In this document: in pieces, positions 3,193-64,000 of the stretch
Position numbering within the stretch: the first letter of the stretch is position 1
How the letters are laid out: each line of letters begins with the position of its first letter
Assembly (NCBI RefSeq): GCF_034531395.1
Contig: NZ_JARVCO010000008.1
Location: 1 to 64,000 of the forward strand
DNA: 64,000 nt
Origin: Pontiella agarivorans
GTDB lineage: Bacteria > Verrucomicrobiota > Kiritimatiellia > Kiritimatiellales > Pontiellaceae
Reading direction: 5' to 3'
Translations under genes and position numbers: made by a program
The notes under the pieces: model-generated
Databases searched by the model: none
Told to the model about the DNA's origin: nothing
What the model saw: only the letters and a program-made list of their open reading frames with translations

Positions 3193-5538
3193 ATGAAAAA
3201 AAACTTCTTATGGATAACCCTGTTGGCTGCAGCCGGTCTGATGGCCGGATGCAAGGAAGTGGATGAACACACCATGACCGTGAACCGGGACTGGAAATTC
3301 CAACGTTTGGAAAATCCGGACGATCCGGCTGACGGTTTCCAGGCATTGGAATTTGATGATTCGGCCTGGACCACAGTGGACCTTCCGCATTCCGGCTATC
3401 TGGAGCCACTGGTCATTACGGATCAGTGGCAGGGTGTGGTGTGGTACCGCAAGGATTTCGAGGTGGACGAAAGTCTGGCCGATAAAAAAATCTGGCTGAC
3501 GCTGGAAGGGGCGATGAGCCAGTCGAAGATCTGGATCAACGGCGAGCTGGCCAAAGAACGCGAAGGCGGTTATCTGCCGGTCGTCGTGGATGCCACGGAC
3601 TATGTGAAACCCGGGCAAAAGAATACGGTGGCGATTCGGCTCGATAGCCGGGACAATCCGTACACCGGGCCGAAACCGATGAAACGTCTTGATTTCTGCA
3701 TGTACAGCGGGCTCTACCGCAATGTGCTGGTGACGATGAAGGAGAAGGTCTACATTTCGCATCCGGTATTGGCCGATAAAGAGGCCGGCGGGGGTATCTT
3801 TATTACATATCCCGAGGTTTCCGCGGCGAAGTCGACGGTTCAGGTGAAAACACATGTGGTGAATGAAAAAGCCGGTCCGCAGACGATTCAGGTTGCGCAG
3901 AAAGTTCTTTTCAAGGGAAAAACGGTGGCGGAAAAAGTCTCGGAGCCGGTGGTGCTTAAAACCGGCAAAGACGTGGAGCTGACCGAAAGTTTCCAGCTGT
4001 CGGATGCACCGCTGTGGTCGGTGGATGAGCCGAATTTGCATACCATGAAAACGACGGTGCTGGTGGACGGAAAAGCGGTTGATTCGGAAACAACGCGTTT
4101 CGGTATCCGCAAACTGGAGTTTCGCAACGGGCATGAATTCTATCTGAACGGGAAGAAAATGTATTTGCGCGGCACCAACCGTCATCAGGATTATCCGTTC
4201 ATAGGTTATGCACTTTCCGATGCGGCACAGTATCGGGATGCGAAGAAAATCAAAGAAGCCGGTTTCAATGTGGTTCGTCTTTCGCATTATCCGCATTCGC
4301 CGGCGTTCATGGATGCGTGTGATGAGCTGGGTCTGCTGACGCTGGATGCCATCATGGGCTGGCAGTATTATCTGGATGATGACCGCTTCCGTGAATACTG
4401 CTATCGCTCTTCACGAGAACTGGTTCGTCGGGACCGGAATCGTCCGAGTGTGCTGGCCTGGGAGGTTTCGCTGAATGAAACGAAGGATATGCCGGACTCC
4501 TTTATTGAAGAGCTGCATCGGCTGGCCCATGCGGAATATCCGGGAGACAATACCTTTACTGCGGGCTGGATTGATCATGCCTGGGATATTTTCCTGCAGG
4601 CACGTCAGCACCGTATTATGCATGATTATCACAAAAACCTGGATAAGCCTTATTTCGTTTCGGAGTACGGGGACTGGGAATATTATTCCAATAACGCCGG
4701 GCTGAATCAGGATCGGCTGGATAAAGACCGCCGTCTTGAGATGAGCAGCCGGCAGGCGCGCGGGTTCGGCGAAGCGCGTTTGCTTCAGCAGGCGCATAAC
4801 CTGCAGGAAGCATATAACGATAATCTGAATACGCATGCCTTCGGAGACGGCTACTGGGTGTTTAACGATTATAACCGCGGTTACGCCGAAGATATCGAGT
4901 ATTCCGGCGTGGTGGATATTTTCCGCATTCCGAAGTTTGCTTATTATTTCTACCAGAGCCAGCGTGATCCGGCACAGGGAGCCATGGCACACGTTGCAAG
5001 TTGGTGGACCAAGGATTCGCCGCTGAATGTCAAAGTCTTCAGCAACTGCGATGAGGTGGAACTTTTCCTGAACGGGGCTTCACTTGGAAAACAGAAACCG
5101 GATACCGGAAAAAATACTGAAAATCTGGGCCATCCGCCGTTTACTTTTGCGCTCAGTACATTCAAGCCGGGCACACTGAAAGCGGTCGGATATATCAATG
5201 GAAAACCGGCGGCAGAGCATCTGGTTCGTACTCCGGGAAAACCGGTTAAGCTTGAGATTGTCATCGATGAAAGCGGAATCGCTCCGCAGGCCGGTGTGAA
5301 TGATACGGTATTTGCCTACATTCAGGCGGTGGATGAACATGGAACGGTGGATCCGACTTATGCGGATGTGGTGATGGTTGAAATGGACGGCGATGCCACG
5401 GTGCTTAATACGGATGCTCTTATGGCGGAAGCCGGCATTGCCACCGCCTTGCTGCAAATCGAAGACGGTGAAGGGGATATTACGCTGACGGCTTCATCAG
5501 GAAATCTGAGTGGAAGTCTGACGTTTAAGGCGGAGTAA
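3193..5538 (+). CDS. glycoside hydrolase family 2 lipoprotein (beta-galactosidase-like)
   Basis: Retaining GH2 glycosidase, 781 residues. The lipobox L-M-A-G-C20 predicts a lipoprotein anchored outside the cytoplasm. Domains: jelly-roll sugar-binding domain (about 25-185), Ig-like domain (187-305), TIM barrel (306-590), then beta domains including a C-terminal bacterial-Ig-like unit (695-781). The acid/base Glu is in LNE429T and the nucleophile is in S-E491-Y-G-D-W. GAGGA at 3183-3187 overlaps the preceding stop and sets ATG 3193. Family knowledge allows beta-galactosidase, beta-glucuronidase or beta-mannosidase activity. The anhydrogalactose-type genes nearby make beta-galactosidase on sulfated galactan oligosaccharides the best inference. 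Two copies of the dispersed palindrome sit at 3298 and 3337. Confidence 0.92.
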   Translation: MKKNFLWITLLAAAGLMAGCKEVDEHTMTVNRDWKFQRLENPDDPADGFQALEFDDSAWTTVDLPHSGYLEPLVITDQWQGVVWYRKDFEVDESLADKKIWLTLEGAMSQSKIWINGELAKEREGGYLPVVVDATDYVKPGQKNTVAIRLDSRDNPYTGPKPMKRLDFCMYSGLYRNVLVTMKEKVYISHPVLADKEAGGGIFITYPEVSAAKSTVQVKTHVVNEKAGPQTIQVAQKVLFKGKTVAEKVSEPVVLKTGKDVELTESFQLSDAPLWSVDEPNLHTMKTTVLVDGKAVDSETTRFGIRKLEFRNGHEFYLNGKKMYLRGTNRHQDYPFIGYALSDAAQYRDAKKIKEAGFNVVRLSHYPHSPAFMDACDELGLLTLDAIMGWQYYLDDDRFREYCYRSSRELVRRDRNRPSVLAWEVSLNETKDMPDSFIEELHRLAHAEYPGDNTFTAGWIDHAWDIFLQARQHRIMHDYHKNLDKPYFVSEYGDWEYYSNNAGLNQDRLDKDRRLEMSSRQARGFGEARLLQQAHNLQEAYNDNLNTHAFGDGYWVFNDYNRGYAEDIEYSGVVDIFRIPKFAYYFYQSQRDPAQGAMAHVASWWTKDSPLNVKVFSNCDEVELFLNGASLGKQKPDTGKNTENLGHPPFTFALSTFKPGTLKAVGYINGKPAAEHLVRTPGKPVKLEIVIDESGIAPQAGVNDTVFAYIQAVDEHGTVDPTYADVVMVEMDGDATVLNTDALMAEAGIATALLQIEDGEGDITLTASSGNLSGSLTFKAE

Positions 5539-5564
5539 AAACAAAAACGTTTGCATCAAGCCGG

Positions 5565-5596: not shown

Positions 5597-5615
5597 GGTT
5601 GATGGAGCGAATCTT

Positions 5616-6476: not shown

Positions 6477-6479
6477 GGT

Positions 6480-7427
6480 TTACTCCTTGTTTCGGATATA
6501 CTGTTTGAGTTCTGAGGATAAACCGGAGAGATCTTCGGCTTTGAGTGATGCGGGATTCGGAAGCTGTGTCCGTCCGCCGAACTGCAGCGCGACACGGGAT
6601 GCAAAAAAAGCGGCAAATTCCATTCGCAGATTCAGCGGCAGTCCGTCCAGCAGGGCAGATGCATAGCCGGCATGATAGGCATCACCGCAGCCGGTGGTAT
6701 CCACCGCCTGCACGCTGAAGGCCGGCTGATGGATAAGTTCCTGCTCGTTCAGGGTCCAGCTTCCCTTAATGCCGTCAGTAATGATGACACGGCCGTCGGT
6801 CCAGCCGGAGAGTTCGTATAAAGCGGCATCCATGGTCTCGCATCCGGTCAGTTCGAGTGCGCCGGATAGGGGCAGAATGGTATCGGTGCCGAGTTTCATC
6901 GCTTTTCGCATCAGTTCCGCGTCGCCGGTTTCAATGTCAAGTACCGACGGAATACCGTATTTATGGGCAATTCTGAGGGCTTCGAGCGCTCCTTCTGTCT
7001 CATACCCATCCACCAAAAGCAGTCCAGCCTCTTTGATGGCTTCCGTGGGGATGTCGCCTGGCGTTAACTTTTCATAACCGGCAAGGCTGTAGTACACCGT
7101 GCGTTCACCCTGCTGATCAATCGCTACCACTGCGATGGCGGGCTGTGCCTTTTCCGATTTGATCAGCAGACTTTCGGAAACGTTGTACATTTGCAACTCG
7201 GTGCGGGAAATGCTGCTCAATGTGTTGTTCCCCAGTTTTCCGACGAAGCCGGTTTTCCAGCCCATGGAAGCCAGGCCGCAGGCGGCATTGCCGGCGGGAG
7301 CACCGCCCTGGATCACCAGACGGGAAACTTCGTGCTTTTCGCCTTCGGTGATTTTATCCGGCCGTTCGAACAAAATGTCGATGACATTAAGGCCGACCAC
7401 CACAGCATCATATTTTTTTCCAGACAT
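6480..7427 (-). CDS. PfkB-family sugar kinase
   Basis: Ribokinase/PfkB fold kinase, 315 residues, ATP-dependent phosphorylation of a sugar or ketose. The N-terminal GGAPAGNAA motif (about 41-49) and the C-terminal signature DTTGCGDAYHAG with catalytic D249 are intact. The start is set at ATG 7427 because GGAGG lies at 7434-7439 in the 16-bp gap after the upstream isomerase stop. A longer frame reaching 7502 overlaps the isomerase and lacks support. Within the operon it should act on the ketose made by the isomerase and feed the aldolase. The exact sugar is not determinable here. One copy of the dispersed palindrome is at 7255. Confidence 0.88.
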   Translation of the reverse strand: MSGKKYDAVVVGLNVIDILFERPDKITEGEKHEVSRLVIQGGAPAGNAACGLASMGWKTGFVGKLGNNTLSSISRTELQMYNVSESLLIKSEKAQPAIAVVAIDQQGERTVYYSLAGYEKLTPGDIPTEAIKEAGLLLVDGYETEGALEALRIAHKYGIPSVLDIETGDAELMRKAMKLGTDTILPLSGALELTGCETMDAALYELSGWTDGRVIITDGIKGSWTLNEQELIHQPAFSVQAVDTTGCGDAYHAGYASALLDGLPLNLRMEFAAFFASRVALQFGGRTQLPNPASLKAEDLSGLSSELKQYIRNKE

Positions 7428-10334: not shown

Positions 10335-11351
10335 CTATTTAATTCCCGCCGCGGCATTGGATCGGTGCAGCAGCTCGTTTCGCATGGCCGCAGAAGCCTT
10401 GAAAAAGGCTTTTTCATTACGCTGTTCGGTTTCGGGGGTATTGGTGCCGTCAGAGGCGATATCGTCGAGCGTCACACCGTGTGTTCCCAGCAGAACCCAG
10501 AAGGTTGCGGAGTCGGAGTCATCAACCGTTTTCAGCCCTTTAGGGAATTTTCCCCGTCGGTACACGCGCCCGAGGTGCGAGGCTGTAAACGCCTCATAAA
10601 ACTCAGCACCGCGCGGGCTGCCTTCCACGATGCCGGCCTGACCGATGGCGGCACACTCGTAAAAAACAACCGCTCCGGCTTCGGCCTGTTTTTTTACATA
10701 AGCAGTGGCCTCTTCGTCAGCCCAGGCATTATGAGTACGCCATGGTTTTTCCATGGTGCCGACGTGGAAATAGGAGTTGGTCCAGTGCGAGATAAAGACC
10801 GCTTTTTTCAACAGGTCTTCACGGCCGGAAGCCAGGCAGTGATTGATCAGCAGGGCCGGTTCCGACTGTGTGCCCCAGCAGAGAATATACAGTGTGCCAT
10901 CCGTTTTTTCCAGTTCCTGGAAAAGGGCTTGGACCGACGGATAGTTTTCCAGAGAACGGTAGGTTTTTGCGGGATCGTATTTTTCAGGATTTTTCCAGGC
11001 ATAGGATTCTACAAAACGGATGTTTTCCGGATAGCCGCCGACCATTTTGTTCAGATTCGGCAGATCGGCGAGATAGGCCGTCAGAAAAAGATCGTCAGCC
11101 CATTTTTTCATGCTGAGTTCACGCTGATGCGGCTGCGAGTTCAGATTGCCGCCCACGACGATGGCTCGGGTGTCGAATTCATTAGCCATCAGCAGGTAGG
11201 CCGCAATGGCCGAAATGTCATCCGGATCGGTGATGTATTTGCCCGGTGCGCTCCGCAGCGTTTTATCCGCACCGTCACTGATAATCCAGACGGATGGTTT
11301 TGCGGCAAACGCCGCCGTACATAAAAACAGAGCCGCAATCAGTTTGATCAT
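10335..11351 (-). CDS. secreted DUF1593 / nucleoside-hydrolase-like protein
   Basis: 338 residues with a signal peptide (about 1-17, AFA before AKPS). Residues 41-60 contain T-D-P-D-D-I-S-A, the acidic Ca-site motif of nucleoside-hydrolase-like folds, followed by the glycine-rich VVGGNLNSQPHQ segment. This matches DUF1593 proteins (the Sde182 type), often found beside glycan-degradation genes and of uncertain activity. GGAGA eight bases before ATG 11351 sets the start. It lies just past the terminator of the anhydrosugar operon, so it is probably a separate unit. One palindrome copy is at 10908. I would not assign a true nucleosidase function. Confidence 0.75.
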   Translation of the reverse strand: MIKLIAALFLCTAAFAAKPSVWIISDGADKTLRSAPGKYITDPDDISAIAAYLLMANEFDTRAIVVGGNLNSQPHQRELSMKKWADDLFLTAYLADLPNLNKMVGGYPENIRFVESYAWKNPEKYDPAKTYRSLENYPSVQALFQELEKTDGTLYILCWGTQSEPALLINHCLASGREDLLKKAVFISHWTNSYFHVGTMEKPWRTHNAWADEEATAYVKKQAEAGAVVFYECAAIGQAGIVEGSPRGAEFYEAFTASHLGRVYRRGKFPKGLKTVDDSDSATFWVLLGTHGVTLDDIASDGTNTPETEQRNEKAFFKASAAMRNELLHRSNAAAGIK

Positions 11352-19836: not shown

Positions 19837-21513
19837 ATGTACCTGAAGATACTCGTTGCCGGCCTGATTACAGCCGCGGCAGCAATGGCTGCACCGTGCC
19901 CGAATATTCTAGTGATTCTCTGCGATGACCTGGGTTATGCCGATGTGGGATTCAATGGAGCCGAAGACATCAAAACGCCGCATTTGGACCGGTTGGCTGA
20001 AGCCGGTACCATCTGCACATCGGCCTATGTGGCTCATCCGTTCTGCGGGCCGAGCCGTATGGGACTGATGACCGGACGGTATCCGCATGAATATGGCGGA
20101 CAGTTTAATCATCCGCCGTTTCAGGAGGGGCTGACGGAATATGACGGTCTCGGTGTTCCTGTGGAGGAAACACTGATTGCTGAAGTGCTTCAAAAGGCGG
20201 GCTATTTTACCGGAGCAATTGGCAAATGGCATCTGGGTACGGCGGATTATGCGCATCCGAATGTTCGTGGTTTTGATGAGTTCTATGGATTTCTCGGTGG
20301 CGGTCATATGTACTTTCCCGAAAAATATGAGCCGGCATATCAGCGCCAGAAAAAGAAAGGCATTGAGCGGATTAATGAATATCTCCATCCGTTGGAATAC
20401 AACGGAAAAGCGGTAACGGGCAAGGGATATCTTACCGATGAACTGACCGGCGAAGCCGTTCGGTTTGTCACTGAAGCCGCCGGCAAACAAAATCCGTTTT
20501 TTCTCTATCTGGCCTACAACGCACCGCATGCGCCTATGGAGGCCACGCCGGAGGATCTCGCCGTTTTTTCGGATATTGAAAACCCGAAACGCCGGACTTA
20601 TGCCGCCATGGTGTATGCCGTCGATCGCGGCATTGCGCGGATAGTGGAAACGCTGAAAAAGAACGGGCAGCTTGAAGATACATTAATTATCTTTCTGAGT
20701 GATAACGGCGGAAAACCATCGCAAGGCGCATCAAACAAACCGTTGCGCGGGCGTAAAGGCGATACATGGGAGGGGGGATTCCGGGTGCCGATGATGTGGT
20801 ATTGGCCCGGAAAAATTCCGGCCGGAACAGTGGATTTCCCCGTTTCATCGCTCGATTTTTACCCCACCTTTGCAGCACTGGCCGGAGGGCAGATTCCTCC
20901 GGGAAAGAAGCTCGATGGAAAAAACATTTTCCAGGCCTTGGAAACCCGTGAAAACCCGAGAAAAGGGGAAATGATTTATGCGGCACGGCACCGCAGTTCC
21001 TATACCGATATTGCTGCACGCCGCGATGAATGGAAGATTACAAAATACGGCAACCAGCCATGGCGTCTTTATAAAATTACCGAAGATCCGGGGGAAGAGA
21101 ACGACTTGGCACAACAGTATCCGGAACGGGTGAAGGAGATGGTCAGGACTGCGAAAAAATGGAGCACCACTCATGCCGAACCGCTCTTTTTTCATGCGGC
21201 CGGTCAGCGCGATTCCTGGGCGAAGTTTACTATGCCGAATTTTGATCGCGATTTCGTTCCCGCCATCGGTGCGCCGGCGTTGGCCCCTCCTGCCCATATT
21301 ACGGATCAACCCGGCAGGGGTTCCGGAATAAAACTGAAAAAGGGCGATTCAACACTGGAGCAGTATATTGCCCGTGAAAAAATAAAATGGGCCTCCAAAG
21401 GCTGGAAGTGGGACCAGGATGCGGTGATCGATACATTCCGGCAAATCGACACGAATGGGGACGGCATCATCAGCGGGGTTGAAAAGAAGATCTATTGGTC
21501 AAAAGAAGAATAA
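19837..21513 (+). CDS. secreted sulfatase with C-terminal EF-hand-like motif
   Basis: 558 residues. Signal peptide about 1-18, Asp pair 30-31, maturation motif C70-G-P-S-R74, LSDNGG near 287. The C-terminus carries an EF-hand-like calcium loop D-T-N-G-D-G-I-I-S-G-V-E at about 538-549, unusual for a sulfatase and reminiscent of dockerin-like ends. The maturation region H-P-F-C-G-P-S-R-M-G-L and later segments closely resemble the sulfatase part of the next gene, indicating an old duplication. One palindrome copy is at 20929. Confidence 0.92.
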   Translation: MYLKILVAGLITAAAAMAAPCPNILVILCDDLGYADVGFNGAEDIKTPHLDRLAEAGTICTSAYVAHPFCGPSRMGLMTGRYPHEYGGQFNHPPFQEGLTEYDGLGVPVEETLIAEVLQKAGYFTGAIGKWHLGTADYAHPNVRGFDEFYGFLGGGHMYFPEKYEPAYQRQKKKGIERINEYLHPLEYNGKAVTGKGYLTDELTGEAVRFVTEAAGKQNPFFLYLAYNAPHAPMEATPEDLAVFSDIENPKRRTYAAMVYAVDRGIARIVETLKKNGQLEDTLIIFLSDNGGKPSQGASNKPLRGRKGDTWEGGFRVPMMWYWPGKIPAGTVDFPVSSLDFYPTFAALAGGQIPPGKKLDGKNIFQALETRENPRKGEMIYAARHRSSYTDIAARRDEWKITKYGNQPWRLYKITEDPGEENDLAQQYPERVKEMVRTAKKWSTTHAEPLFFHAAGQRDSWAKFTMPNFDRDFVPAIGAPALAPPAHITDQPGRGSGIKLKKGDSTLEQYIAREKIKWASKGWKWDQDAVIDTFRQIDTNGDGIISGVEKKIYWSKEE

Positions 21514-21549: not shown

Positions 21550-24500
21550 GTGAAACATACTATTATATCCATGCTGATTCTGAGCGCAGCCTGCGCGGAA
21601 GCATCGGTTATTGTGCAGTGGGGGGAATCCGGAGGGCATAATGCGGTGGTCAGCAGTTCGGCAAACTTTGTCGACGGTTCGATCACCACCAATTATTCCG
21701 GCAGTCAGCCGGATGTTTACATCGATTCGGGATATTATGAGCTTAACACCGCATCGCGTTCTCCTATGTTTCAGGTGTCGGCCAGTCTGAGTTCATTCGA
21801 CAGTGCCCAGACGCAGAACAACAGTGGGTTCGATCGCATCCGACTCGTCGCCGATGTCACTCATATGGAAACCATGTTTGTATGGGATGACTTTTTAACA
21901 ACGGATGACCTGGTTACCGGTTTCAGCTGGTATGGCTACGCTGCGGGAGAAAGCAGTGCCGATCTTTATTTTCTCATTCATAAAGACGGAGCCTGGTATG
22001 CCGCGCTGGGATCAGACCGCGTCAACGGTGCGGGCGGAGTCGATCTGCCTGATGCGACGGCTGCAACCTGGTATGCCTTCACTCCCATCACCAACGGGGC
22101 CGCTGCAATCGGTCCGGAGGTATCCGTTGATTTGTCGGGGGTCACCGCTGTCGGGTGCTATATCGTGCTGCCCAGCGGTTCGGGAACGAACATCGGACCG
22201 TATATGGGCTATTTTCAGGTCACGGCCGTCAGCAGTATCGGCGGTCCGCCGGCGTTTATTGCAGATTCTGTGATTAAATCAAATGCCATGGAAGGCGTGG
22301 CCTATACCAACAGTATTGCAGGGGATGCATCGGATCCCGACGGCGATCCAATGACGTTTTATAAAACCGGGGGTCCGGCCTGGCTGAACGTTGAGACCAA
22401 TGGTCAGATTACCGGAACGCCGGGGGTATTTGATACCGGAACCAATACCTTTACTGTTGAAGTAAGCGCAGTGGGAGGAACGGACAGTGCCATCCTTGAA
22501 ATCGTTGTGGACGGAGCTCCGGCAGTGGGCAGCCCGCCGGCATTTTCCAACGATCCGATCATCAAGCCGAATGCAACCCGGGGCTTGGGATATACCAACA
22601 GTATTGCCTTGGAAGCCAGCGATCCGGAAGGTGATCCCATGACCTTTTCCAAAGGAAGCGGTCCGGCGTGGCTGTCGGTGGATCCGGATGGCACCATTTA
22701 CGGCACGCCGGCCGAATCCGATGAGGGGTTGAATGAATTTACGGTTCAGGTCATTGCGGCCGGAGGTGCTGATTCGGCGACATTGAACATCACCGTTGAA
22801 CGTCCACCGGTGCCGTGGAATCCACACAGCGTGATGGTCGACTTCACGATTGATCAGGGCTATGTGGATGGAGATGTAAACAACAGTTCGAACTGGGTGG
22901 CTATGGGGGCGAATACGGTGAATACCCATGCTTCCGGTTATGACGGTGGGGAAGGGGTGCTTGTTTTTGATCCGGATACAACGTACCGCGATGCCGTATT
23001 CAATTCCTATGCACTGCTTGCCGAGGGCGAACGTATTACATCGGAATCGGTGTTCCGTTTCAACAGCACGAACACGGGCTCTTCAGCAACAAGCTACATT
23101 TTGTATGCCCATCTCTATTCGGATGAATGGTCGGTTGACGCAAATGAGGTTCAGGTGCGGTTGCGGCGCGTGAAAACGGCCCCGGATATATTCAGCATCC
23201 AGACGCTTTCTCGCGATGATTCAAATGCATCGCAATTTGAATATTCAGCAGAATTTTCCGGCAGTGTCCTCGGTCTGTCGTCCGGAATCGGTCAGTCGGA
23301 CTGGCTGAAAATGACATCGGTTTTAACCAAAGGAGCCGATGCTTCGTCCTGGAGCCTTTCGCTCAGGCTGGAAAACCTCGCTACTGCTTTTACGGTGGTT
23401 GATGAAACGCTGACCGGTATTGTCACTGCGTCGGATTTTTATAATGCGGGGCCGGTGTATCCCGGTCTCACCTCGGGCAACACGGATGAACAGCTTCAGG
23501 TGGCAACCGGCAGCCGCGAAGTGGATACATTCAATTCCTTCACCGATTCCGTTCCGCTCGTAGGGCATCCGCCGGCATTTACGCTGGATCCGATTCAGAA
23601 GCCCGTGGCGACCGTGGATACGGGCTATACCAACAGTATTGCATTGGATGCCGTTGATCCGGAAGGGGATCCGCTGACGTTCAGCAAACTGTCCGGCCCC
23701 GCGTGGCTGACTGTGGAAACGAACGGGGTGATTTGGGGAACGCCGCAGTCTCCGGATCTGGGGACCAACCGTTTTACTGTTCAGGTGAGTGCCGTGGGCG
23801 GAACAGATACGGCCGCACTGGAGATTGAGGTTGAGTCCGTCCCGGTTGTGAAGACCGGGTGGCAGGAATTTTATGAAAACTACGCACTCAGTGGAAATAA
23901 AGATGCCGACTTTGATATGGACGGAGCATCCGATGTTGCCGAATTTGCTTTCGGCGGAAATCCCGTAAATGCGGAAAGCCGACCGATGGAAGCCTATCTT
24001 GAATTCGACGGGATCAATGCTGTTACGTTCTATTCCGTGGAAACAGCGCATACGAATCCGGGAATTTCCTATGTCTGGGAATGGACCGACAGCCTGACTT
24101 CCAATGTCTGGAACACCGAATGGGCATCGACCAATTTTGCCGCGTCGACCTTGGCGGGGTATAACGAGGTCAACCGACAGCTTGATATTACCGGTATGGA
24201 TAATCTCTATTTCCGAAATCGGCTTTTCCGTCGACCGCAACCGAATATTCTAATGATTCTTATGGATGATCTCGGCTATTGTGATGTCGGGTTTATGGCA
24301 GATATTTTCGGGGAGGCGCGACCGTTGAGTCCTTCCACCCCGAATATTGATTCACTGGCAGGAAACGGCATTATCTGCTCACAGGCTTATGTGCCGCATC
24401 CGTTTTGTGGCCCGAGTCGTATGGGACTGCTGACCGGACGCTATCCGCATCATTTCGGGGGCTCAAAAAATCATCCCTACGAAACAGCTGATCGGCCGTC

Positions 24501-46544: not shown

Positions 46545-47435
46545 TCAGATCATTTCGAGCAGTTGATTCAACGAGGTGATGACGGCGTCCGGTTTCAGGT
46601 TTTTGCAGCGGTCGTCTGTTTCACGCAGTCGTAATGAACGTTTGTCTCCGGCGAAAAGGACGGTTTTGCATCCGGCCTGTTGAGCGGTGTAGATGTCGTT
46701 GAGCATATCGTTGCCGACATAGACGGTTTCCGAAAGTTTTATGCCGTGGTTCTTTTCCAGAAATTTTCCAGCCTTTGGAAACAGGTCGGCGGAAGGTTTG
46801 GCTTTCAGCTCTTTATAGGACCAGATGCAGCATTCCGGATCAAAGCCGATTTCTTCAAGAGCGCGCTCGAAGAACGCGGAAAAAATTATGGGGGTGTAAT
46901 ACTGCGCATTTGAGACAATGCCCATCGGCAGTCCGCGTTCCTTTAACCCATTTAGTAATTCTTTACATCCAGGCATTGGAAAAACCGGATTCACCCGGCA
47001 TTCGTATTCGATTCCGAGACGGCGGATCTGGTCGGCGGAAAATGCGTGTTTGCGCAGCGTTTCAGTTTTAGAAAGGTTTGCGATTATTTTGGTCCAGATT
47101 TTGGTGATTTCCACTTCCGGGAAATCGGCTCCGGCTTCATGTCCGGCTTTGTGCCATTCCTGAATCTCGGCTTTCATCATTTCTTTACCGATCACACCCG
47201 CCTGTTCCGCTTCTCCTTCGAAGCCGGAAACCACCAGCGCCTGAGTCAGTGCTTCCGCGGTATCGGTAGCGGTTGCTGTACCGACGTCGCCGGAACCTGA
47301 AATGATTAATGTGCCATAGACATCGAAGAGAACCGCTTTTACACCGTCGAGCTTTTCCAGTTGCGGTTTGGTTTCGGTAGGAATGGGCGACAGCGGCCCG
47401 CAGTTTTTGAGAATAATGTCTTCCAGTCTGTTCAT
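46545..47435 (-). CDS. HAD-superfamily hydrolase
   Basis: 296 residues. Motif I is F-D38-V-Y-G-T, with Tyr in place of the second Asp, a form known from haloacid-dehalogenase-type members. Motif II is G-I-V-S-N near 184, a Lys follows in A-K-P-S-A-D, and motif IV is Y-V-G-N-D-M-L-N-D near 249-257. The start at ATG 47435 is chosen because the upstream in-frame part to 47561 carries two palindrome copies and overlaps the next gene. Substrate not recognisable. Palindrome at 46766 inside the gene and 47448 in its leader. Confidence 0.85.
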   Translation of the reverse strand: MNRLEDIILKNCGPLSPIPTETKPQLEKLDGVKAVLFDVYGTLIISGSGDVGTATATDTAEALTQALVVSGFEGEAEQAGVIGKEMMKAEIQEWHKAGHEAGADFPEVEITKIWTKIIANLSKTETLRKHAFSADQIRRLGIEYECRVNPVFPMPGCKELLNGLKERGLPMGIVSNAQYYTPIIFSAFFERALEEIGFDPECCIWSYKELKAKPSADLFPKAGKFLEKNHGIKLSETVYVGNDMLNDIYTAQQAGCKTVLFAGDKRSLRLRETDDRCKNLKPDAVITSLNQLLEMI

Positions 47436-47517
47436 GCCCTTATCTTTTTCCAATCCCTGGAAATTTCCAAGCTTTGGATGCGATAAAGGGCAGAACAGAT
47501 TTCCTGAGAATGAAAAT

Positions 47518-50509: not shown

Positions 50510-52047
50510 TATTCATACTCCGGTAGAATGGTAAGCAGTTTTTCTCTTTCCGCACGGTGGACCTCTAGGACGCTGCCCCAATCCTTAATTTCCGGGTAGC
50601 TGATATAATCTTCAGGTTCTGAAGAAACATCCCACCAGCGGTTATTGCCATCCCGCATCACGTGGTGTCCGCGAATAATCTGATTCCGTTCCTGATACGT
50701 GTACACCCAGTCGCGGTGAGTCTGTTTGTCACCGAAAAGAAAGGGGACCATGCTGACCCCGTCATAGACATAGTTCTCCGGAATTTCGAAACCGGTCAGT
50801 TCGGCAATGGTCGGCCAAAGGTCGACGATGCCGGCCATGACATCCTGCCGTCCGTGCTTGGTCATGCCGGGGGCATAGATAATCATCGGAACATGACATC
50901 CTTTCTGGCGATCCGGGCTGTTTTTCCCGTATCCGCCCGTTCCGTTATCGGCTGTAATGATGAAGACGGTGTTGTCTAAAATATCCATCTCTTCAAATTT
51001 TTCGAGATACCGGCTGATCTGAAAATCGATATAGTTGATGTGATTATGCATGCCCGGTTCCGTAACCGTTCCGTGCGCATCGTATCGGCCTTTGTCACCA
51101 GTGATCTTCGGATCGGTTCGGTGATAACGTTTCCCATTCCAGTGAATTTTCGGCGTGCCCGGCCAGCTGGAGTCGGCACTGTTGCCGAGAAAGTCGTACT
51201 GGTCGTGCCCCAGGTGCGAGGCATGGTAGATGAAGAACGGTTTCTTTTCGTTCATTCTCCGGTCGATGAAGTCAAAAATAAATTCCATTTCCAGATCGGG
51301 ACCATATGTGCTGATTCCGAAATTTTCCTGTGATTCCGGTGTATTCGGCCACCAGACCAGTTTGCCCGGGGCCGACGGATCGTTCCAGAGGCGGACGTTG
51401 GGCTGCCAGTACCAGCTGTCCTGTGCATAGGTCTTTTTTTCAATGGGCTTCCCGGTATCCATATTGATCAGCACGCGTTTCCCGTTGATGGTTTTCGGAT
51501 CAAGCTGGAAATCGCTGTATGGATTGGTCGGCTCGGCGAGCAGGCCGGGAGTGATCATGGCTTCATCGAATCCGTATTTTCCGTAATCACCTGAAAGATG
51601 AAATTTTCCTGCCCAGTAGGTGGCATAGCCCGCCTGAGCGGCCACATGGCTCAGCAGAATGGGCGTGCTGTCATAAATGTGATAGGCCTCGTTCCAACCG
51701 CCGGCGTTTTTCACCTTGCCGATGTCCCGATTGCTCCACCAGGTCTGGCGGTGGGCAAACCGTCCGGTCAGCAGCATAGCCCGGCTCGGTTTGCACAGGG
51801 TCGCCGCCCAGGCGGAGGTGATCCAGCAGCCTTTTTCGGCCAGTTGATCCATTACCGGGGTGCGGGCCCGGTATTCAGGATTGGACGTGTCGCCGCGTTC
51901 CGGCGGGCTCCACTGCGGGGTTCCATAGATTGGAAACTCCCGTGCACTGATGTCGTCTGCAAAATAGAGTACGATATTGGGCTTAACGGGGACTGCAGCG
52001 ATGGCGGAGACCGCGGTGAAAAGAGAGATAAGCAACCCCTTATGCAT
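50509..52047 (-). CDS. secreted sulfatase with C-K-P-S-R maturation motif
   Basis: 512 residues. Signal peptide about 1-18, Asp pair 31-32, maturation motif C85-K-P-S-R89 with a basic Lys in the variable position, T-A-D-N-G near 363. It is the tandem paralogue of the following gene, with clearly diverged sequence between the shared blocks. Start and stop overlap neighbours by one base (TAATG) on both sides. One palindrome copy is at 51921. Confidence 0.9.
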
Positions 52048-53961: not shown

Positions 53962-56106
53962 GTGAAAAAATACAACATGACAGTTTGGACGGTTCTGCTT
54001 CTGGCGGTACTGCAGGTTTTCGGAGGTCCTTTAACGCGTATTCCCGATATTCGGGCGCTTGCTCCGGAGGCGGCTGCAGAGGCGAAAGTTGTCGACGTGG
54101 AGGCTCAGGTGGTCTGGGTGGATCCGGTGCGCAGCAGTTTTTTTCTGAATGACGGAGAGCAGGGCATCTATGTTTGCCGCCGAGTGAGGCCCTCTGGAAA
54201 AACGAATTTGAAACCGGGCGATACGGTGCGGGTTCGAGGCGTTACCGGTGCAGGAGGGTTTGCCGCCGAAATCATTGCGGAAAGCGTTCAGTTTCTGGAG
54301 CACCGCCCGCTTTCGAAAGGGCGTGCGCTGTGGCCGACTCATCTTAATTCGCCTGAAGTGGATTGTGACTGGTTCAATATGGCCGGCCGGCTGGTTTCCT
54401 ATGAGGTGATTGAAGAGTCGTTTGTGATTATGGCGGAAATGATCCGCGATGAGCAGACGATGTATTTGCAGATTCCTGATACGCCGGAAAATCGCAAGCG
54501 CATGGATGCACTGATGTTCCAATGGGTGGAATTCAATGCGGTTGCCGGAACGGTGAATAACAGCAACCGCCAGATTGTGGGGCGGATTTTCCATGTTTCG
54601 TCGGCGTCGGATTTCAAGGTGTCCGGGATTTCGCTGAAAGAGGCGCTGAGTGAAGTGAAAGAAGCGGTGCCGATTCATGAGCTGATGCGGCAGGGCATGA
54701 GACTCCACAGCATTGTGAAAACCTATGGAACGGTCACGCATGTTGGAAATCGTGAGCTTTTTCTGAGGGGAGAACGGGCGGCGCTGTATGTTCAGATTCA
54801 GGATCCGGGGGGCGTTGTGGTCGGAGACCGGGTTGAAGTGGTGGGCTTGGTCAGTCCGCATCCGGTATCGCCGGCCATGCGGGCCCATTCGGTACGCGTT
54901 ATCGGTCATGACGATCTGCCTGAACCCATCCGATTGGATTCTCTGTCGAATGTTACGGACCGTTATAATTTTGATTTAGTTCAAATGGACGCGAAACTGG
55001 TTGAAAGCGGAAGTTCGTTTCAATTGAGCAACGGTCAGGGAAATCCGAAAAAGCTGATCAAACTGCTTTGTCGATCCGGAAACCGTTTTTTTGAAGCGGA
55101 TCTGCAGACGGGTGAAGGGCTTCCGGAATCGATCAAGGCGGGGGCGGTTTTGCGTTTGAGCGGGTTGTGTCATGTGAACCGCGAAACGCGGCGGGCGTGG
55201 AATCTGGATATTCAGGGGATTCGGCTTGAACTGCGCAGTGCTGCGGATGTGCAGCTGCTCACTGCGGCACCGTGGTGGACCGTACAGCGGCTGCTGTGGG
55301 TGGCGGGAATTATTCTTCTGATTGCGCTGATTTTTCTGATCTGGGTATTGCTGCTGCGTAAAACGGTGGAGCGGCAGACCGGGATCATTGGAGAAAAAAT
55401 GGAACAGGAAGCGGTGCTGAATGAACGCCAGCGCATTGCGCGGGAACTGCACGATAATTTGGAACAGGGTCTTTCCGGGGCCATTTTCCGGTTGGGCGGA
55501 ATACGGTTTATGCTGCAAACGAATATGCAGGAAAATCAGAAACGATTCGAGCTGGTTGACGCGGAGAGGACTCCGTTTGAACCGCTTCATACCGCGTGGC
55601 GTGAAGGTGCGGAGAAAATTCATGAAGATCTGGAAGCGGTTGAGCATATGCTGAGTTACTGTTCTGCAGAATCGCGGACCTCCATCCTGGATTTGCGCGG
55701 GGGATTGTTGGAATCCATGGATTTGGTTGATGCGGCTGATGTGATGATTAAGAATTTGAATGAACAATGGAACGCCGCTGCTGAACTGCACGTTGCCGGA
55801 GAGCCGCGGCGTTTTTCCCGGGAGGCGGAGCGCAATGTTCTGCTGGTGATCAAGGAAGCGGTTTCCAATGCCATACGGCATGCGAATGCAGACGGTATTG
55901 AAGTGATGCTGGATTATTCTGATGGGCTTACGGTGGAAATTCACGACGACGGTTGCGGGTTTGAGGTGGAAACGGCGGAACAAAGCGGACGGTTCGGGCT
56001 CCGGGGGATGCGTGAGCGGATGAGGAATACGGGCGGTATACTGGTCGTACACAGTCATCCCGGCGAAGGAACAACTGTTTCGACAACGTTGGAGATGAAC
56101 AAATGA
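53962..56106 (+). CDS. membrane sensor histidine kinase with OB-fold-like sensor repeats
   Basis: 714 residues from GTG 53962 (ATG 53977 is the alternative). Signal/anchor about 7-20. The extracytoplasmic part (about 25-435) contains three related beta-rich units, each with a V-x-V-x-G-x-V pattern and a G-I-Y-V-like or L-Y-V-Q-like strand, resembling OB-fold sensor domains of PVC kinases. One membrane helix at 444-466. NarL-type kinase core: H497 in R-E-L-H-D-N, and the ATP domain with N-A-I-R-H-A-N-A, D-D-G-C-G-F and F-G-L-R-G-M. Partner regulator overlaps by four bases. It lies beside the sulfatase operon. Palindrome at 54517. Confidence 0.9.
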   Translation: MKKYNMTVWTVLLLAVLQVFGGPLTRIPDIRALAPEAAAEAKVVDVEAQVVWVDPVRSSFFLNDGEQGIYVCRRVRPSGKTNLKPGDTVRVRGVTGAGGFAAEIIAESVQFLEHRPLSKGRALWPTHLNSPEVDCDWFNMAGRLVSYEVIEESFVIMAEMIRDEQTMYLQIPDTPENRKRMDALMFQWVEFNAVAGTVNNSNRQIVGRIFHVSSASDFKVSGISLKEALSEVKEAVPIHELMRQGMRLHSIVKTYGTVTHVGNRELFLRGERAALYVQIQDPGGVVVGDRVEVVGLVSPHPVSPAMRAHSVRVIGHDDLPEPIRLDSLSNVTDRYNFDLVQMDAKLVESGSSFQLSNGQGNPKKLIKLLCRSGNRFFEADLQTGEGLPESIKAGAVLRLSGLCHVNRETRRAWNLDIQGIRLELRSAADVQLLTAAPWWTVQRLLWVAGIILLIALIFLIWVLLLRKTVERQTGIIGEKMEQEAVLNERQRIARELHDNLEQGLSGAIFRLGGIRFMLQTNMQENQKRFELVDAERTPFEPLHTAWREGAEKIHEDLEAVEHMLSYCSAESRTSILDLRGGLLESMDLVDAADVMIKNLNEQWNAAAELHVAGEPRRFSREAERNVLLVIKEAVSNAIRHANADGIEVMLDYSDGLTVEIHDDGCGFEVETAEQSGRFGLRGMRERMRNTGGILVVHSHPGEGTTVSTTLEMNK

Positions 56107-56859: not shown

Positions 56860-59800
56860 ATGAAAAAAACAGTTTTAACCTTATGTGCTTCCTTGGGGTG
56901 GTCTGCAATGCTATCGGCCGCAGCGGAAAAACCGCTGGCCAATTGGAGGTTTGATGATGGGGTCGGCAATACGGTGGCCGATTCTTCGGGCCATGGAAAT
57001 TCGGGAAAAATCGGTGAAATCAAATGGGTGATGGGGGCCGTGAATTCGGCCGGTCAGCTGGGCTATCAGGCGGGGGTGCAGATTGCCCACGATCCCAGTC
57101 TGCTTCCTGATAAGAGCTTTTCGGTACAGGCCTGGATTAAACCGTGGGCGCCGAAATATGATCAGCACCCGAATATTGTCCGCAAAAACGGGTCCTATGT
57201 GTTCAAGCTTGCGCCAAGCAAATCGCTCGCTTTGGTGCTTTGGCTGAACGGTGAAAAGAAAACCTTTGAATCGAAACATAAAGAATGGCCGAACGGAAAA
57301 TGGCAGCATGTGGCCGCGACGTATGACGGGAAGAAGGTTTGTCTCTATGTAAACGGAGGCCTTGATTCCACGTTTCCAGCCTCTGGAATAATTTCGGGCA
57401 GTGCATCAGACTGTTTTATCGGCGCCCAGAATAAGCAGTTCTTTTTTAATGGGACGCTTGATGAAGTCCGGTTGGACGGGGTTGCGCTGAGTTCGCGTGA
57501 TATTGCTGAGTCGAGCTATAAGGGACGGCTGGAAATGGCGCGTCGCGATAACCGGTTTACGGATTTTTATGAAAAAATTCAGAAGCGCAGCGGCGAAACG
57601 CAGGTGCCGGGGACGCTCTGGATTGATGCCGAGGATTTTTCGGATTACGGCGGCTGGTGGATGGATACCCAGTTTGTGCCGCAAATGGGATCGCCGTTTC
57701 TGATGGCGGCCGGCATTGGTACACCGGTTGAAAATGCAAAGACCACGATTAAGGTTCCGGAGTCTGGAACGTACCGGCTGTGGGTGCGAAATAAGAACTG
57801 GTATGGCAACCGCTATGCACCGGGTCAATTTGCGGTTTCCATTAACGGTAAAAAATCCGAAACCACCTTCGGTACCCGCGAACAGCGTGCATGGGTCTGG
57901 CAGGATGGCGGAACGTTTGAACTGAAAAAGGGTGAAACAGCCCTCGAGCTGGAGGACTTGACCGGCTGGTACGGCCGCTGCGATGCTCTGCTGCTGACGA
58001 AGGATCTGGAATTCTATCCGAAACAGGAGCAGAAGGACTATCTGCCCATGCGCGAAAAATTTGTCGGCACGATTCCGGTCAAAGACGCGGGACACTTTGA
58101 TTTTATTGTCGTCGGCGGCGGTGTTGCCGGATGCAATGCGGCCATTGCGGCGGCGCGCGGCGGCGCAAAAGTGGCCCTGATTCAGGATCGTCCGATGGTG
58201 GGCGGAAACAACAGTGCGGAAATGGGCGTGCCGGTTTCCGGCGGTTCGAGTCTTGGAAAAGGGCGTGAAACCGGATTGAACGAAGAGATCGGCCGGATTC
58301 ATTCCTACAATTTTCTGAGCAAGTGGGCCACCGGGGCTGAGCGGGTGATTGCTGATGAACCGAATATTACGCTGTTCCTCAATGAGCATGTTTTTGAAGC
58401 CGAAACGGACAAGGACAACCATATCAAGGCGGTGAAATCGTTTGATATGATCGACGGGCAGCATACCCGCTATACCGCCGATCTGTTTGCCGACTGCACG
58501 GGTGACGGCTGGCTGGGCTATTATGCCGGAGCGGACTGGATGCTCGGGCGTGAATCGAAAGAACAGTTCGGCGAAATGAATGCCAAGGATATTGCCGACA
58601 ATGTCACCATGAGCGGATCACTGATGCAAAATTCGATTCTGGGTTATCAGGCCATTGATACCGGTAAACCATATACGTTTGAAGGGGAAGACTGGTTCTA
58701 CGATCTTCGGATGAATGAAGAGGGTTATGTGAACCAGCGTCCGCGGTATGAAAGCGGAATCCGTGCCGGAAACTGGTGGACGGAAAATCATGGTCGCAAC
58801 GATGATCTGTGGGATCCGGAATGGACGCGGGATGATCTGATTCTGGTCAGTCTCTCCTATTACCACTGGATCAAGAATTATTCGCCGCTGGCTGAAAAAG
58901 CGAAAAACTATCAGCTGCGGTATATTCCCGTCACCAACGCGAAGCGTGAAACGCGCCGTCTGGTGGGGGATGTGATTGTGACGGAACACGATATACTCAA
59001 CCGTAAAGTGTTCCCGGACCGTGTGGGTTATTTTGTCTGGAAGCTGGATGTGCATCATCCGCTGGGCATCTTTTCGCCGGGCAGCCCGTATGACTATGAA
59101 AACAACATCTCTCCGGCAAGTATTCCGATGCGGATGCTCTATTCCAAAGATGTGCCGAATCTGTTTATGGCCGGGCGCCATGTTTCGGTCACACACGTTG
59201 CACTGGGTTCCGCACGGGTTCAGGGTACGACCGGTATGATGGGGCAGGCGGTCGGCGCGGCGGCGGCGATGTGTCTGAATTATGAGACCACCCCGCGGGG
59301 CATTGTGCAAAATCATATGTCGGAACTGCAGCAGCAATTGTTGAAGGATGATGTGACCATTCCGCATCTGCGCAATGAAGATCCGGATGACCTGGCGCTG
59401 ATGGCCAATGTGAAGGCGTCCAGTCATAAGTCATTGGAAGACGGCGTGCAGAATGTGATCAACGGCCTGACCCGTCCGATGGATGAGAATATGGAAATGT
59501 GGATCGGAAAAGTGCCGAACAATATGTGGATTTCCGATCCGAAACAGGCTATGCCGCAGTGGGTGGAACTTGATTTCGGGGGAAAAAAGAAGGTGAACTC
59601 GGTTTATCTTACGTTTGATACCAACCTGAAGGTTAAACGGTACACCAGCTGGGAGCAGAAACCGGAAGAACGCATGCCGCCGGAATGTGTACGTGATTAC
59701 CAGGTGCAGGTGCAGAAAAACGGAAAATGGGAAACGGTGGCGGATGTGACGAACAATTATCAGCGCCGGCGAGTGCATCATTTCCAAACATTGGAAACGT

Positions 59801-62101: not shown

Positions 62102-62327
62102 ACGCATAGTCATTTCCTGATTGAGAGACCTGTTGATCAGAATACGCATTTTTGGCGTTGCCTTACCGAAGGTATTCCGGCGTAAAAAACGGAGTTTTCA
62201 GGATGCTGTTATTCTCTGTTGCTGCGTTGGTCTCTTTCCGGAACGGTTTTGATGGATGGCGCAAATATGAATATTGTTTGCGTAAAACGCTGTATATATT
62301 CAGGAAGCAACCCATTCTACTCATTCT
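62102..62327. other. intergenic region with small upstream frame
   Basis: 226 bp. A 42-codon open frame (62203-62331) has GGAG eight bases upstream and overlaps the next gene's GTG start as GTGA, a coupling-like arrangement. The predicted peptide is basic and hydrophobic. It may be a leader peptide or chance. Nothing else seen. Confidence 0.35.
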
Positions 62328-64000
62328 GTGAAAAAGTGCAGAATTTATAAAGCAAGAGTGGGTATCGTTCTGCTCTGGAGCTTCCTGCTGTTGTTGGGTG
62401 CAACGGTATTCGGACAGGTACCCATTACTTCGATTCAGCAGATTCGCCGCCTATCTGCAAAACAGGCTGGACAGGGCTACCCGGTTCAGATCGAAGCACA
62501 GGTGCTGCGGGTAAATCCTTATAAAAACCATTTTTTTATGCATGACGGAGAAGTCGGTATTTTTGTCCGTGGAATAACGAATGACTCCTCTGTTGTAAAA
62601 TCTTTGAAAGCGGGCGATGAGGTGCTTGTCGGAGGCAAAACTACGGCGGGCACGTTTGTGCCGGATATTCAAGCTGCGTTTATACGGGTGCAGGGCAACC
62701 GGCCGCGGCCGGAGCCGATGCAGATTTATAATACTGATTTTGTGAGTCCGGCCAGCGACTGCAAGTGGGGCTGGATTCGGGGACGCCTGCTTTCCATGAA
62801 GGTTTCAGCAGATCAAACGGGTATTTTACTCGAATTGATTGATGTCGACAGCGAAGAGTATGTGGTGCATCTGCCGTATTCTGAATCCAATGAGCAGCGG
62901 ATCCGGGAGCTGATGTTCAGCTTTGTGAAGTTAAGTGCGGTCTGTGGAACCGTGGCCAATGAAAACCGGCAGATGATCGGTCGTATTTTTTATGCCCATT
63001 CCGCGGATGATTTTCTGCTGTCCGGAGAAGAGTGGTTGCTGAATACGGTTGATACGGGTGATATTCATGAACTGATGAGGCATAATGTTTCGTTCAACCG
63101 TCCTTTCCGAACACACGGTATTGTACTGTATTCCCGCGGAAAAGAGATGGTTCTTCGAGGAGAACGGGCTTGTCTGAAAGTGGCGCTGAATGATCCGGTT
63201 GACGTCCAGCCCGGCGCTGAAGTTTCATTAACCGGGTTCATTTGGTTGCAACCGGTCGGCCCCGCTTTCCGGGCCGGTGAGATTGAAATGATCGGCAAAG
63301 CAGAGCGTCCGGTTCCTGTGGTGCTCGATCTGCTGAACCCGCTTGACCCGCTGATGAATTATAATCTGATTCAGGTGGATGCTGAACTGGTTGAAATCAA
63401 GAAAGATTATGCCGATGGCGGCTCTGTTCCGCAGTATACCATGCGCTGCCGCTCGGCCGGTGAATTTTTTGAAGCGCGCCTGCCGGCGGGGATACAGCCG
63501 GAAGGCCGGGTTGAGCCGGGAGCCATGCTACGTCTTTCCGGTATATGTACTATGCAGCGGGATGATACGGAATTCCAGAATCTGGTGATCTCCGGCTTTT
63601 GGCTTCAGCTGCGCGGAACAGAGGATATTGAAGTGCTGAGTCCGCCACCCTGGTGGACAAAAGCCCGCCTGCTTATGCTGCTCGGCGTTGTGATGATTGT
63701 GACCATGATCTCCATGGTCTGGATTGTGATCCTGCGGAAAACCGTGGAACGTCAGACTCGTATTATCGCCGAAAAAGTGGAACGCGAATCGATCCATGAA
63801 GAGCGCCAGCGGATTGCCCGGGAACTGCACGATAATCTGGAACAGGGCCTGGCCGGGGCGATTTTTCATCTGGGAGGGGTTCGGCGTATTTTCCGGAAGA
63901 GTGCTGAAAGGAATTTCCGGCATCTGGACGATCTGATCACGGCAGGAAATATTGAGGGGGTCGGTACTTTTTCCAGAGAGTGGAAAACGGAAACGGATCA
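62328..64000 (+). CDS. second OB-sensor histidine kinase, truncated by window end
   Basis: An open frame of 557 codons from GTG 62328 runs off the window without a stop. It is a paralogue of the kinase at 53962: hydrophobic signal (about 10-29), three similar beta-rich sensor units (D-G-E-V-G-I-F-V; L-R-G-E-R-A; T-V-E-R-Q-T after the helix), a conserved P-P-W-W-T before the membrane helix (about 445-468), and the kinase start E-R-Q-R-I-A-R-E-L-H-D-N-L-E-Q-G with its phospho-accepting His near 500. ATP domain lies beyond the window. A palindrome copy is at 63971. Confidence 0.88.
   Translation, partial: MKKCRIYKARVGIVLLWSFLLLLGATVFGQVPITSIQQIRRLSAKQAGQGYPVQIEAQVLRVNPYKNHFFMHDGEVGIFVRGITNDSSVVKSLKAGDEVLVGGKTTAGTFVPDIQAAFIRVQGNRPRPEPMQIYNTDFVSPASDCKWGWIRGRLLSMKVSADQTGILLELIDVDSEEYVVHLPYSESNEQRIRELMFSFVKLSAVCGTVANENRQMIGRIFYAHSADDFLLSGEEWLLNTVDTGDIHELMRHNVSFNRPFRTHGIVLYSRGKEMVLRGERACLKVALNDPVDVQPGAEVSLTGFIWLQPVGPAFRAGEIEMIGKAERPVPVVLDLLNPLDPLMNYNLIQVDAELVEIKKDYADGGSVPQYTMRCRSAGEFFEARLPAGIQPEGRVEPGAMLRLSGICTMQRDDTEFQNLVISGFWLQLRGTEDIEVLSPPPWWTKARLLMLLGVVMIVTMISMVWIVILRKTVERQTRIIAEKVERESIHEERQRIARELHDNLEQGLAGAIFHLGGVRRIFRKSAERNFRHLDDLITAGNIEGVGTFSREWKTETD

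What the first reader, a model, noticed from the sequence alone, without database searches (positions are those of the whole stretch)
3298..63985. Dispersed palindrome TTCCA-N5-TGGAA at about 400 times random frequency
I counted 24 exact copies. Ten fixed bases in 64 kb predict about 0.06 by chance at equal base composition. The copies lie in unrelated genes (GH2, kinases, acyltransferase fusion, anti-sigma, YyaL, HAD, oxidoreductase, kinases), and 23 use all three reading frames with different amino acids. Protein conservation therefore cannot explain them. The density is highest from 30 to 40.4 kb (11 copies) and low in sulfatase runs, which would fit more recently acquired sulfatase blocks that have not yet gained sites. 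Candidate roles: binding site of a nucleoid or segregation protein (Noc, SlmA or KOPS-like), a DNA-uptake or repair-recombination site, a methylation target, or a mini-element that spreads within genes. I do not know a published description for this lineage.
Basis: partly seen in the sequence, partly recalled or inferred. Interest (0 to 1): 0.88.

Follow-up and report, generated by a model that had tools for sequence, protein, structure and literature searches.

The report
Genome-wide helically phased palindrome in Pontiella
The genome of the marine bacterium Pontiella agarivorans carries over a thousand copies of one gapped DNA palindrome that is conserved as DNA inside unrelated genes and, in relatives, is lined up in step with the turns of the double helix, as if an unidentified protein organises the whole chromosome with it.

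Summary
The window has 25 exact TTCCA-N5-TGGAA (0.02 expected). The genome has 1146 against 5 for the reversed pattern; its 4,436,865 bases in 12 contigs match Pontiella agarivorans NLcol2. High counts are patchy and, in the phylum sample, confined to one class; some ruminant-gut Bacteroidota also carry phased arrays.

In orthologous genes of three site-rich relatives (74-76% identical), 24 of 34 sites are kept exactly (about 10% expected). Constraint falls on the ten core bases, not on spacer or flanks, and no site-length insertion was seen. The closest relative keeps them only at the neutral level. In relatives, neighbouring sites tend to lie 2, 3, 4 or more helical turns apart. Spacer letters argue against a stem-loop.

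Best reading: the binding site of an unidentified homodimeric double-stranded-DNA-binding protein that assembles on one face of the helix and acts genome-wide, probably in chromosome organisation; biased DNA uptake is the main rival. AbrB/MazE, Lrp, MraZ, RAYT and ComEC do not track the sites. Fewer sites in sulfatase genes is not supported.

The parts
3298..3312 (.). TTCCA-N5-TGGAA site
   Evidence: exact match
3337..3351 (.). TTCCA-N5-TGGAA site
   Evidence: exact match; 39 bp from the previous site
7255..7269 (.). TTCCA-N5-TGGAA site
   Evidence: exact match
10908..10922 (.). TTCCA-N5-TGGAA site
   Evidence: exact match
20929..20943 (.). TTCCA-N5-TGGAA site
   Evidence: exact match
24099..24113 (.). 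TTCCA-N5-TGGAA site
   Evidence: exact match
30246..30260 (.). TTCCA-N5-TGGAA site
   Evidence: exact match; kept exactly in G001 and G009
30349..30363 (.). TTCCA-N5-TGGAA site
   Evidence: exact match; kept in G001, G009, G017
30653..30667 (.). TTCCA-N5-TGGAA site
   Evidence: exact match; kept in G009, G017, G022
31299..31313 (.). TTCCA-N5-TGGAA site
   Evidence: exact match; kept in G001, G017, G022
32685..32699 (.). TTCCA-N5-TGGAA site
   Evidence: exact match; kept in G001, G009, G017, G025
34443..34457 (.). TTCCA-N5-TGGAA site
   Evidence: exact match; kept in G001, G009, G017
35239..35253 (.). TTCCA-N5-TGGAA site
   Evidence: exact match; kept in G001, G009, G017
38391..38405 (.). TTCCA-N5-TGGAA site
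   Evidence: exact match; kept in G001
39012..39026 (.). TTCCA-N5-TGGAA site
   Evidence: exact match; kept in G001 and G025
39442..39456 (.). TTCCA-N5-TGGAA site
   Evidence: exact match; kept in G001, G009, G017
40225..40239 (.). TTCCA-N5-TGGAA site
   Evidence: exact match; no exact ortholog seen
40319..40333 (.). TTCCA-N5-TGGAA site
   Evidence: exact match; kept in G009 and G025
46766..46780 (.). TTCCA-N5-TGGAA site
   Evidence: exact match
47448..47462 (.). TTCCA-N5-TGGAA site
   Evidence: exact match
51921..51935 (.). TTCCA-N5-TGGAA site
   Evidence: exact match
54517..54531 (.). TTCCA-N5-TGGAA site
   Evidence: exact match
57374..57388 (.). TTCCA-N5-TGGAA site
   Evidence: exact match
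59782..59796 (.). TTCCA-N5-TGGAA site
   Evidence: exact match
63971..63985 (.). TTCCA-N5-TGGAA site
   Evidence: exact match

Best explanation
The palindrome (fuller consensus t-TTCCA-R-N-S-N-Y-TGGAA-a) is the binding site of a sequence-specific homodimeric protein that reads double-stranded DNA, one subunit per TGGAA half-site, with half-site centres 10 bp (one helical turn) apart. Dimers on neighbouring sites sit on the same face of the helix and probably contact each other, so pairs and arrays are kept at whole numbers of turns (2, 3, 4 and more). The protein acts genome-wide, inside genes and between them, most likely in chromosome organisation. The sites arise and are lost by point substitution, are held by selection or a site-level drive while the protein is present, and decay after its loss. 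Shown: enrichment, constraint limited to the ten core bases, loss in relatives, helical phasing in relatives, and no stem-loop signature in the spacer. Inferred: the protein, dimer-dimer contact and the role in chromosome organisation. The protein is not identified.
For: 1146 sites against 5 control sites. Of 12 sites in window 28-41 kb, 24 of 34 comparisons with G001, G009 and G017 keep all ten core bases against a 9-11% null; mismatch is 0-12% per core position, 24-50% in the spacer and mostly 20-40% in the flanks. In the nearest relative G025, 12 of 60 aligned sites are kept (null 16.7%), while 11 of 15 aligned G025 sites are sites in G000, so G025 is losing them. Adjacent spacings in 80 loci selected for spacings of 21-32: 21 (15), 22 (44), 30 (14), 31 (121), 32 (48), 14 others. 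Samples of G032 not selected for arrays: distances of 36-130 bp between sites with at most one mismatch, n = 28, R = 0.73 at 10.5 bp, p = 3e-8; exact sites n = 10, R = 0.89, p = 5e-5 (the test takes pairs as independent). Spacer positions 6 and 10 look independent: A..C 23, G..T 17, A..T 17, G..C 15, other 13 on the coding strand of G000. Of 201 distinct arrays, 66 lie in same-direction, 24 in convergent and 20 in divergent gaps, 52 inside predicted genes, 39 at contig or locus edges: no promoter bias (recount). The centre changes from R..Y to Y..R in several genera of f20, as expected for a protein that changes specificity.
Against: No binding protein was found. The best candidates by architecture (Lrp) or half-site (AbrB/MazE, MraZ) fail on distribution, sequence or promoters. 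In the window's own genome phasing is not significant (6 exact pairs, R = 0.54, p = 0.18; 21 pairs with one mismatch, p = 0.15) and no 3-site array exists. Conservation is not seen in every relative with many sites: G022 (829 sites) keeps 2 of 7 (p = 0.15) and G005 (670 sites) 0 of 12. Selection on about 1000 single sites each would be weak; a drive (uptake, repair) may fit better. No binding, expression or methylation data were seen.
Confidence: 0.6

Rival explanations
1. DNA uptake or recombination signal: DNA with the palindrome is preferentially taken up or recombined, so sites accumulate by molecular drive, as with Neisseria DUS or Haemophilus USS (recalled).
For: Density of about one per 2-4 kb in the richest relatives, sites in genes and gaps, exact retention among some site-rich relatives and decay elsewhere; sites denser in DNA aligned to the fetched G025 stretch than in DNA not aligned to it (0.37 against 0.14 per kb; coarse, since unaligned DNA may simply lie elsewhere in G025); ComEC in 46 of 48 genomes.
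Against: ComEC is present equally in site-poor G004 and G019 and in site-losing G025. The palindromic form and the whole-turn spacing of pairs and arrays are not predicted.
Confidence: 0.2
2. HIP-like by-product of a DNA methyltransferase plus biased repair, as proposed for cyanobacterial HIP1 (PMC4390886).
For: HIP1 is the closest known phenomenon, and its presence and replacement generally go with matching methyltransferases (abstract and first part of section 3.4 read). CCA-N5-TGG inside our site is a known type II specificity (recalled).
Against: The A of CCA is the most frequently replaced core base among one-mismatch copies in G000, G032 and G025 (in G048 the outermost base is), whereas in HIP1 deviations concentrate on the outer bases. 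Samples of eight site-poor genomes show no comparable replacement palindrome. Phasing is not predicted. No methyltransferase was searched for.
Confidence: 0.08
3. REP-like mobile repeats handled by a RAYT transposase.
For: P. agarivorans has RAYT-family genes; one (NF047646, 88.6 bits, cut-off 80) is missing at its place in site-losing G025. In G057 and G015 arrays recur with shared linkers.
Against: The family matches 70 of 80 genomes, rich and poor alike (G025 6, G004 4, G019 1 matches); none was found in site-rich G057 (88% complete) or in the array-bearing Bacteroidales G479, and only a weak one in rich G094. Intragenic sites arise by substitution. A..C at positions 6/10 is not avoided. 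A single RAYT subfamily was not tested apart.
Confidence: 0.06
4. Ordinary transcription-factor regulon or RNA elements (terminators, hairpins).
For: Arrays in some genomes sit just upstream of start codons; pheS is next to arrays in 4 distinct places.
Against: Most sites in this genome are inside genes, evenly along them (KS p = 0.87); distinct arrays occur as often in convergent (24) as in divergent gaps (20); no Rfam family matches four array loci up to E = 0.5.
Confidence: 0.04

Closest known systems
HIP1 and other highly iterated palindromes of cyanobacteria (Elhai 2015, PMC4390886; abstract and first part of section 3.4 read)
   Same: Short palindrome repeated genome-wide, lost in some relatives, not fully explained.
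   Different: Here the palindrome is gapped (5-5-5), occurs in helically phased pairs and arrays in relatives, has a different pattern of tolerated mismatches, and the site-poor relatives sampled show no comparable substitute palindrome.
Ss-LrpB and other Lrp/AsnC operators (recalled)
   Same: 15-bp 5-5-5 palindromes spaced by about three helical turns, wrapped by oligomers.
   Different: The Lrp of this class is found in rich and most poor genomes and its recognition helix is not conserved among site-rich genomes.
DUS/USS uptake sequences (recalled)
   Same: Over a thousand genome-wide sites, conserved while the system works.
   Different: Palindromic and helically phased here; ComEC does not track the sites.
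REP/REPIN-RAYT systems (recalled)
   Same: Palindromic genome-wide repeats, some as arrays between genes; RAYT-family genes present in the genome.
   Different: Mostly intragenic substitutions here, with dsDNA phasing in relatives and no tracking by the RAYT family.
NrdR box pairs (recalled; a paper search with NrdR terms returned nothing)
   Same: Tandem palindromes at 31-32 or 21 bp.
   Different: Even-length boxes at a few promoters, not a genome-wide site.

Membership tests
Highly iterated palindrome (HIP-like) | palindrome far above composition-based expectation across the genome | tested here: met
   1146 against 5 control; 25 against 0.02
Highly iterated palindrome (HIP-like) | matching methyltransferase in the genome | not tested
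   no methyltransferase search made; one-mismatch spectrum argues against CCA-N5-TGG as the target
Lrp/AsnC operator set | 15-bp 5-5-5 palindromes at whole helical turns | tested here: met
   in relatives; not significant in G000 itself; the defining architecture is recalled
Lrp/AsnC operator set | an Lrp with conserved recognition helix that tracks the sites | tested here: not met
   PF01037 in 32 of 32 rich and 20 of 26 poor genomes; recognition helix variable in the 52 loci aligned
MraZ or AbrB/MazE operator | family presence tracks the sites; own promoter carries the motif | tested here: not met
   PF04014 in 119 of 193, PF02381 in 43 of 51 genomes without tracking; 5 of 7 mraZ loci carry two or three TGGG at 10-bp steps upstream, and none of the 7 has the motif just upstream of mraZ
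REP/REPIN-RAYT | RAYT present where repeats are, absent where they are lost | tested here: not met
   a single RAYT subfamily was not tested apart
REP/REPIN-RAYT | copies inserted as units between genes | tested here: not met
   85 of 118 sites intragenic in G000; no site-length insertion in alignments; G057 and G015 arrays with shared linkers may be an exception
DNA uptake sequence | raises uptake of DNA that carries it | not testable with these tools
   ComEC present in 46 of 48 genomes, no tracking
KOPS/Chi-type polar site | strand polarity relative to replication | tested here: not met
   perfect palindrome has no polarity; no trend by eye in 21 samples along G032

The most novel reading that the evidence does not exclude
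A sequence-specific bacterial chromatin: an unknown oligomeric protein binds one 15-bp palindrome every 2-4 kb over the whole chromosome of site-rich species, inside genes as well as between them, and assembles along one face of the helix, so that the site has shaped coding sequence including amino acids. It is old in Kiritimatiellia, changes its DNA specificity between lineages, is repeatedly lost, and has a counterpart in ruminant-gut Bacteroidota.
Probability: 0.35. Interest if true: 0.93.

Novelty: new variant of a known kind. Interest (0 to 1): 0.82.

Why it matters
Few genome-wide iterated DNA motifs are known and HIP1, the closest, has no settled explanation in the paper I read. Here the constraint, the losses and the helical phasing can be read from sequence, and site-rich species are in culture (P. 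agarivorans; P. sulfatireligans), next to relatives that lost the sites. That gives a direct natural experiment on what maintains a genome-wide DNA motif and whether bacteria can have a sequence-specific chromatin.

Tried and rejected
AbrB/MazE (PF04014): absent in site-rich G032, G009, G057 and G037, present in many poor genomes. Lrp (PF01037): right architecture and in 32 of 32 rich genomes, but also in 20 of 26 poor ones; its recognition helix varies, and only 5 of 52 lrp loci hold any site, 4 of them within 200 bp upstream (52 of the listed matches were fetched, not all). ComEC, MraZ and RAYT: no tracking. A tandem-ArsR protein of G000 missing in the G025 stretch (C2:239791-240321) was found in no other fetched sequence, but only parts of the other genomes were held.

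Rfam search of four array loci: no match up to E = 0.5. Viral contigs: 25 stretches with paired sites in IMG/VR, not followed up. Genes next to arrays: no recurring family beyond pheS (5 loci, 4 distinct places) and a few small groups. Alternative palindromes in 40-53 kb samples of eight site-poor genomes: none comparable (largest count 11 against 3.0 expected in G079); the G053 sample was partly masked and unusable. Origin-terminus trend: none by eye. Papers: the searches listed no description of this motif in Kiritimatiellota (listings only); in PMC7356697 and PMC10880615 only passages were seen, and 'palindrom' occurs in neither. PMC5217627 (abstract and passages) scanned 569 genomes for spaced motifs; TTCCA and Kiritimatiella do not occur in its main text.

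Limits: gene calls were made with a simple ORF and codon-usage script of mine. The loci were selected for arrays with set gaps, so their spacing counts are conditional; the phase test uses samples not selected for arrays, except the first 80 kb of G048, taken because sites had been listed there. 'Rich' and 'poor' panels were chosen by me from site or array counts.
Full report
OBSERVATION. The window holds 25 exact copies of TTCCA-N5-TGGAA. A dinucleotide shuffle predicts 0.02, word frequencies 0.34, and a synonymous-codon shuffle of the genes 3.2 against 24 coding copies. Spacing five is specific: TTCCA/TGGAA pairs at gaps 0-8 other than 5 occur 0 or 1 times. From about 118 sites of this genome the fuller consensus is t-TTCCA-R-N-S-N-Y-TGGAA-a. 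The genome has 1146 copies against 5 of the reversed pattern. Its 4,436,865 bases in 12 contigs equal those printed for Pontiella agarivorans NLcol2 (PMC10880615, passage).

DISTRIBUTION. Within the genus, counts run from 5 (1.3 Mb) to 2297 (6.3 Mb), for example 20 in 4.3 Mb and 2237 in 5.4 Mb. In the phylum search (387 genomes) every genome with 50 or more sites, 44 by my count with G000, belongs to the window's class, and the highest count in another class is 30. Pontiella sulfatireligans has 829 and Pontiellaceae B12227 has 2297. Three-site arrays occur in 60 of 193 class genomes, with 0 control matches in the rows shown, and not in P. agarivorans itself. Four such genomes have 31, 53, 55 and 298 sites against 0-6 control; in the two whose places were listed most sites are in 22-bp arrays.

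EVOLUTION. The window stretch 28-41 kb has orthologous DNA in ten relatives. Among G001, G009 and G017, 24 of 34 aligned sites are exact, against 9-11% for other positions; G022 keeps 2 of 7, G025 3 of 12, and G005, G004, G019 and G024 none of 12, 12, 7 and 10. Per-position mismatch against the first three is 0-12% in the core, 24-50% in the spacer and mostly 20-40% in the flanks. No alignment shows a site-length insertion within 30 bp of a site. In G005, G004, G019 and G024 the core match at these positions is below average (5.1-6.7 against 7.0-7.3 of 10), so the sites stand where sequence is otherwise fairly conserved, and at some of them the amino acids differ between rich and poor species. 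Rich and poor species interleave on an unrooted tree. In 163 kb aligned to G025 only 12 of 60 aligned sites remain, the neutral level, while 11 of 15 aligned G025 sites are shared with G000. Exact to one-mismatch counts, background not subtracted, are 118:119 in G000, 126:108 in G032, 74:30 in G048 and 37:110 in G025.

GEOMETRY. In G048, 34 of 38 adjacent distances of 16-200 bp fall in 16-35 bp with R = 0.96 at 10.5 bp. In G032, sites with at most one mismatch at 36-130 bp give n = 28, R = 0.73, p = 3e-8, with phase about zero; exact sites n = 10, p = 5e-5. In G000 the test is not significant (exact n = 6, p = 0.18; one mismatch n = 21, p = 0.15), nor in decaying G025 (one mismatch n = 12, p = 0.53). 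Whole-turn spacing points to protein bound on one face of double-stranded DNA. The spacer positions that would close a stem look independent, with A..C as common as pairable combinations in G000.

LOCATION. In 464 kb of this genome 85 of 118 sites are inside genes, in all frames; density is 0.20 per kb in genes and 0.83 between genes. They are even along genes, and gaps over 150 bp fit a random spread in G000 and G032; G048, with its arrays, departs from both. Of 201 distinct arrays in relatives 66 lie in same-direction, 24 in convergent and 20 in divergent gaps, 52 inside predicted genes and 39 at edges. No origin-terminus trend was seen by eye in 21 samples of G032.

CANDIDATE PROTEINS. AbrB/MazE, Lrp, MraZ, ComEC and RAYT were tested across panels of 48 to 193 genomes and none tracks the sites. 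Lrp was the best match in architecture; all six panel genomes without it are site-poor, but 20 of 26 poor genomes have it and its recognition helix is not conserved among rich ones. The binder is unknown, and this is the main gap.

INTERPRETATION. I favour a genome-wide binding site of an oligomerising dimeric DNA-binding protein, probably organising the chromosome (0.6). Biased DNA uptake or recombination is the main rival (0.2). As a phenomenon it belongs with highly iterated palindromes such as HIP1 (PMC4390886, abstract and first part of section 3.4 read) and differs by its gapped form, its phased arrays and its mismatch spectrum.

Noticed in passing
G109 (phylum search): The reversed control pattern AAGGT-N5-ACCTT has 55 copies in this 2.4-Mb genome of family f44 and the forward pattern none; possibly another iterated palindrome.
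   Followed up: no
L225, L226, L230, L257, L260, L268, L272, L285: Prevotella and other Bacteroidales genomes from ruminants carry the same palindrome in arrays at 21 or 22 bp spacing; whole-genome counts 31-298 against 0-6 control in the four genomes counted.
   Followed up: partly
L169, L176 (G015): A Pontiella-genus bin has Y..R-type arrays, unlike G000; may be contamination from an f20-like genome.
   Followed up: no
L025-L029 (G057): Arrays with shared linkers recur in several places, like a dispersed repeat family built from the palindrome.
   Followed up: partly
G000:C2 about 322-345 kb (L017, L018): Several flagellin-like and other flagellar-type genes not aligned to the fetched G025 stretch (named by eye), although the species is listed as non-motile in PMC10880615.
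   Followed up: no
L349, L350, L351, L352, L353: mraZ loci with two or three TGGG at 10-bp steps upstream of the gene, resembling the MraZ operator known from other bacteria (recalled).
   Followed up: partly
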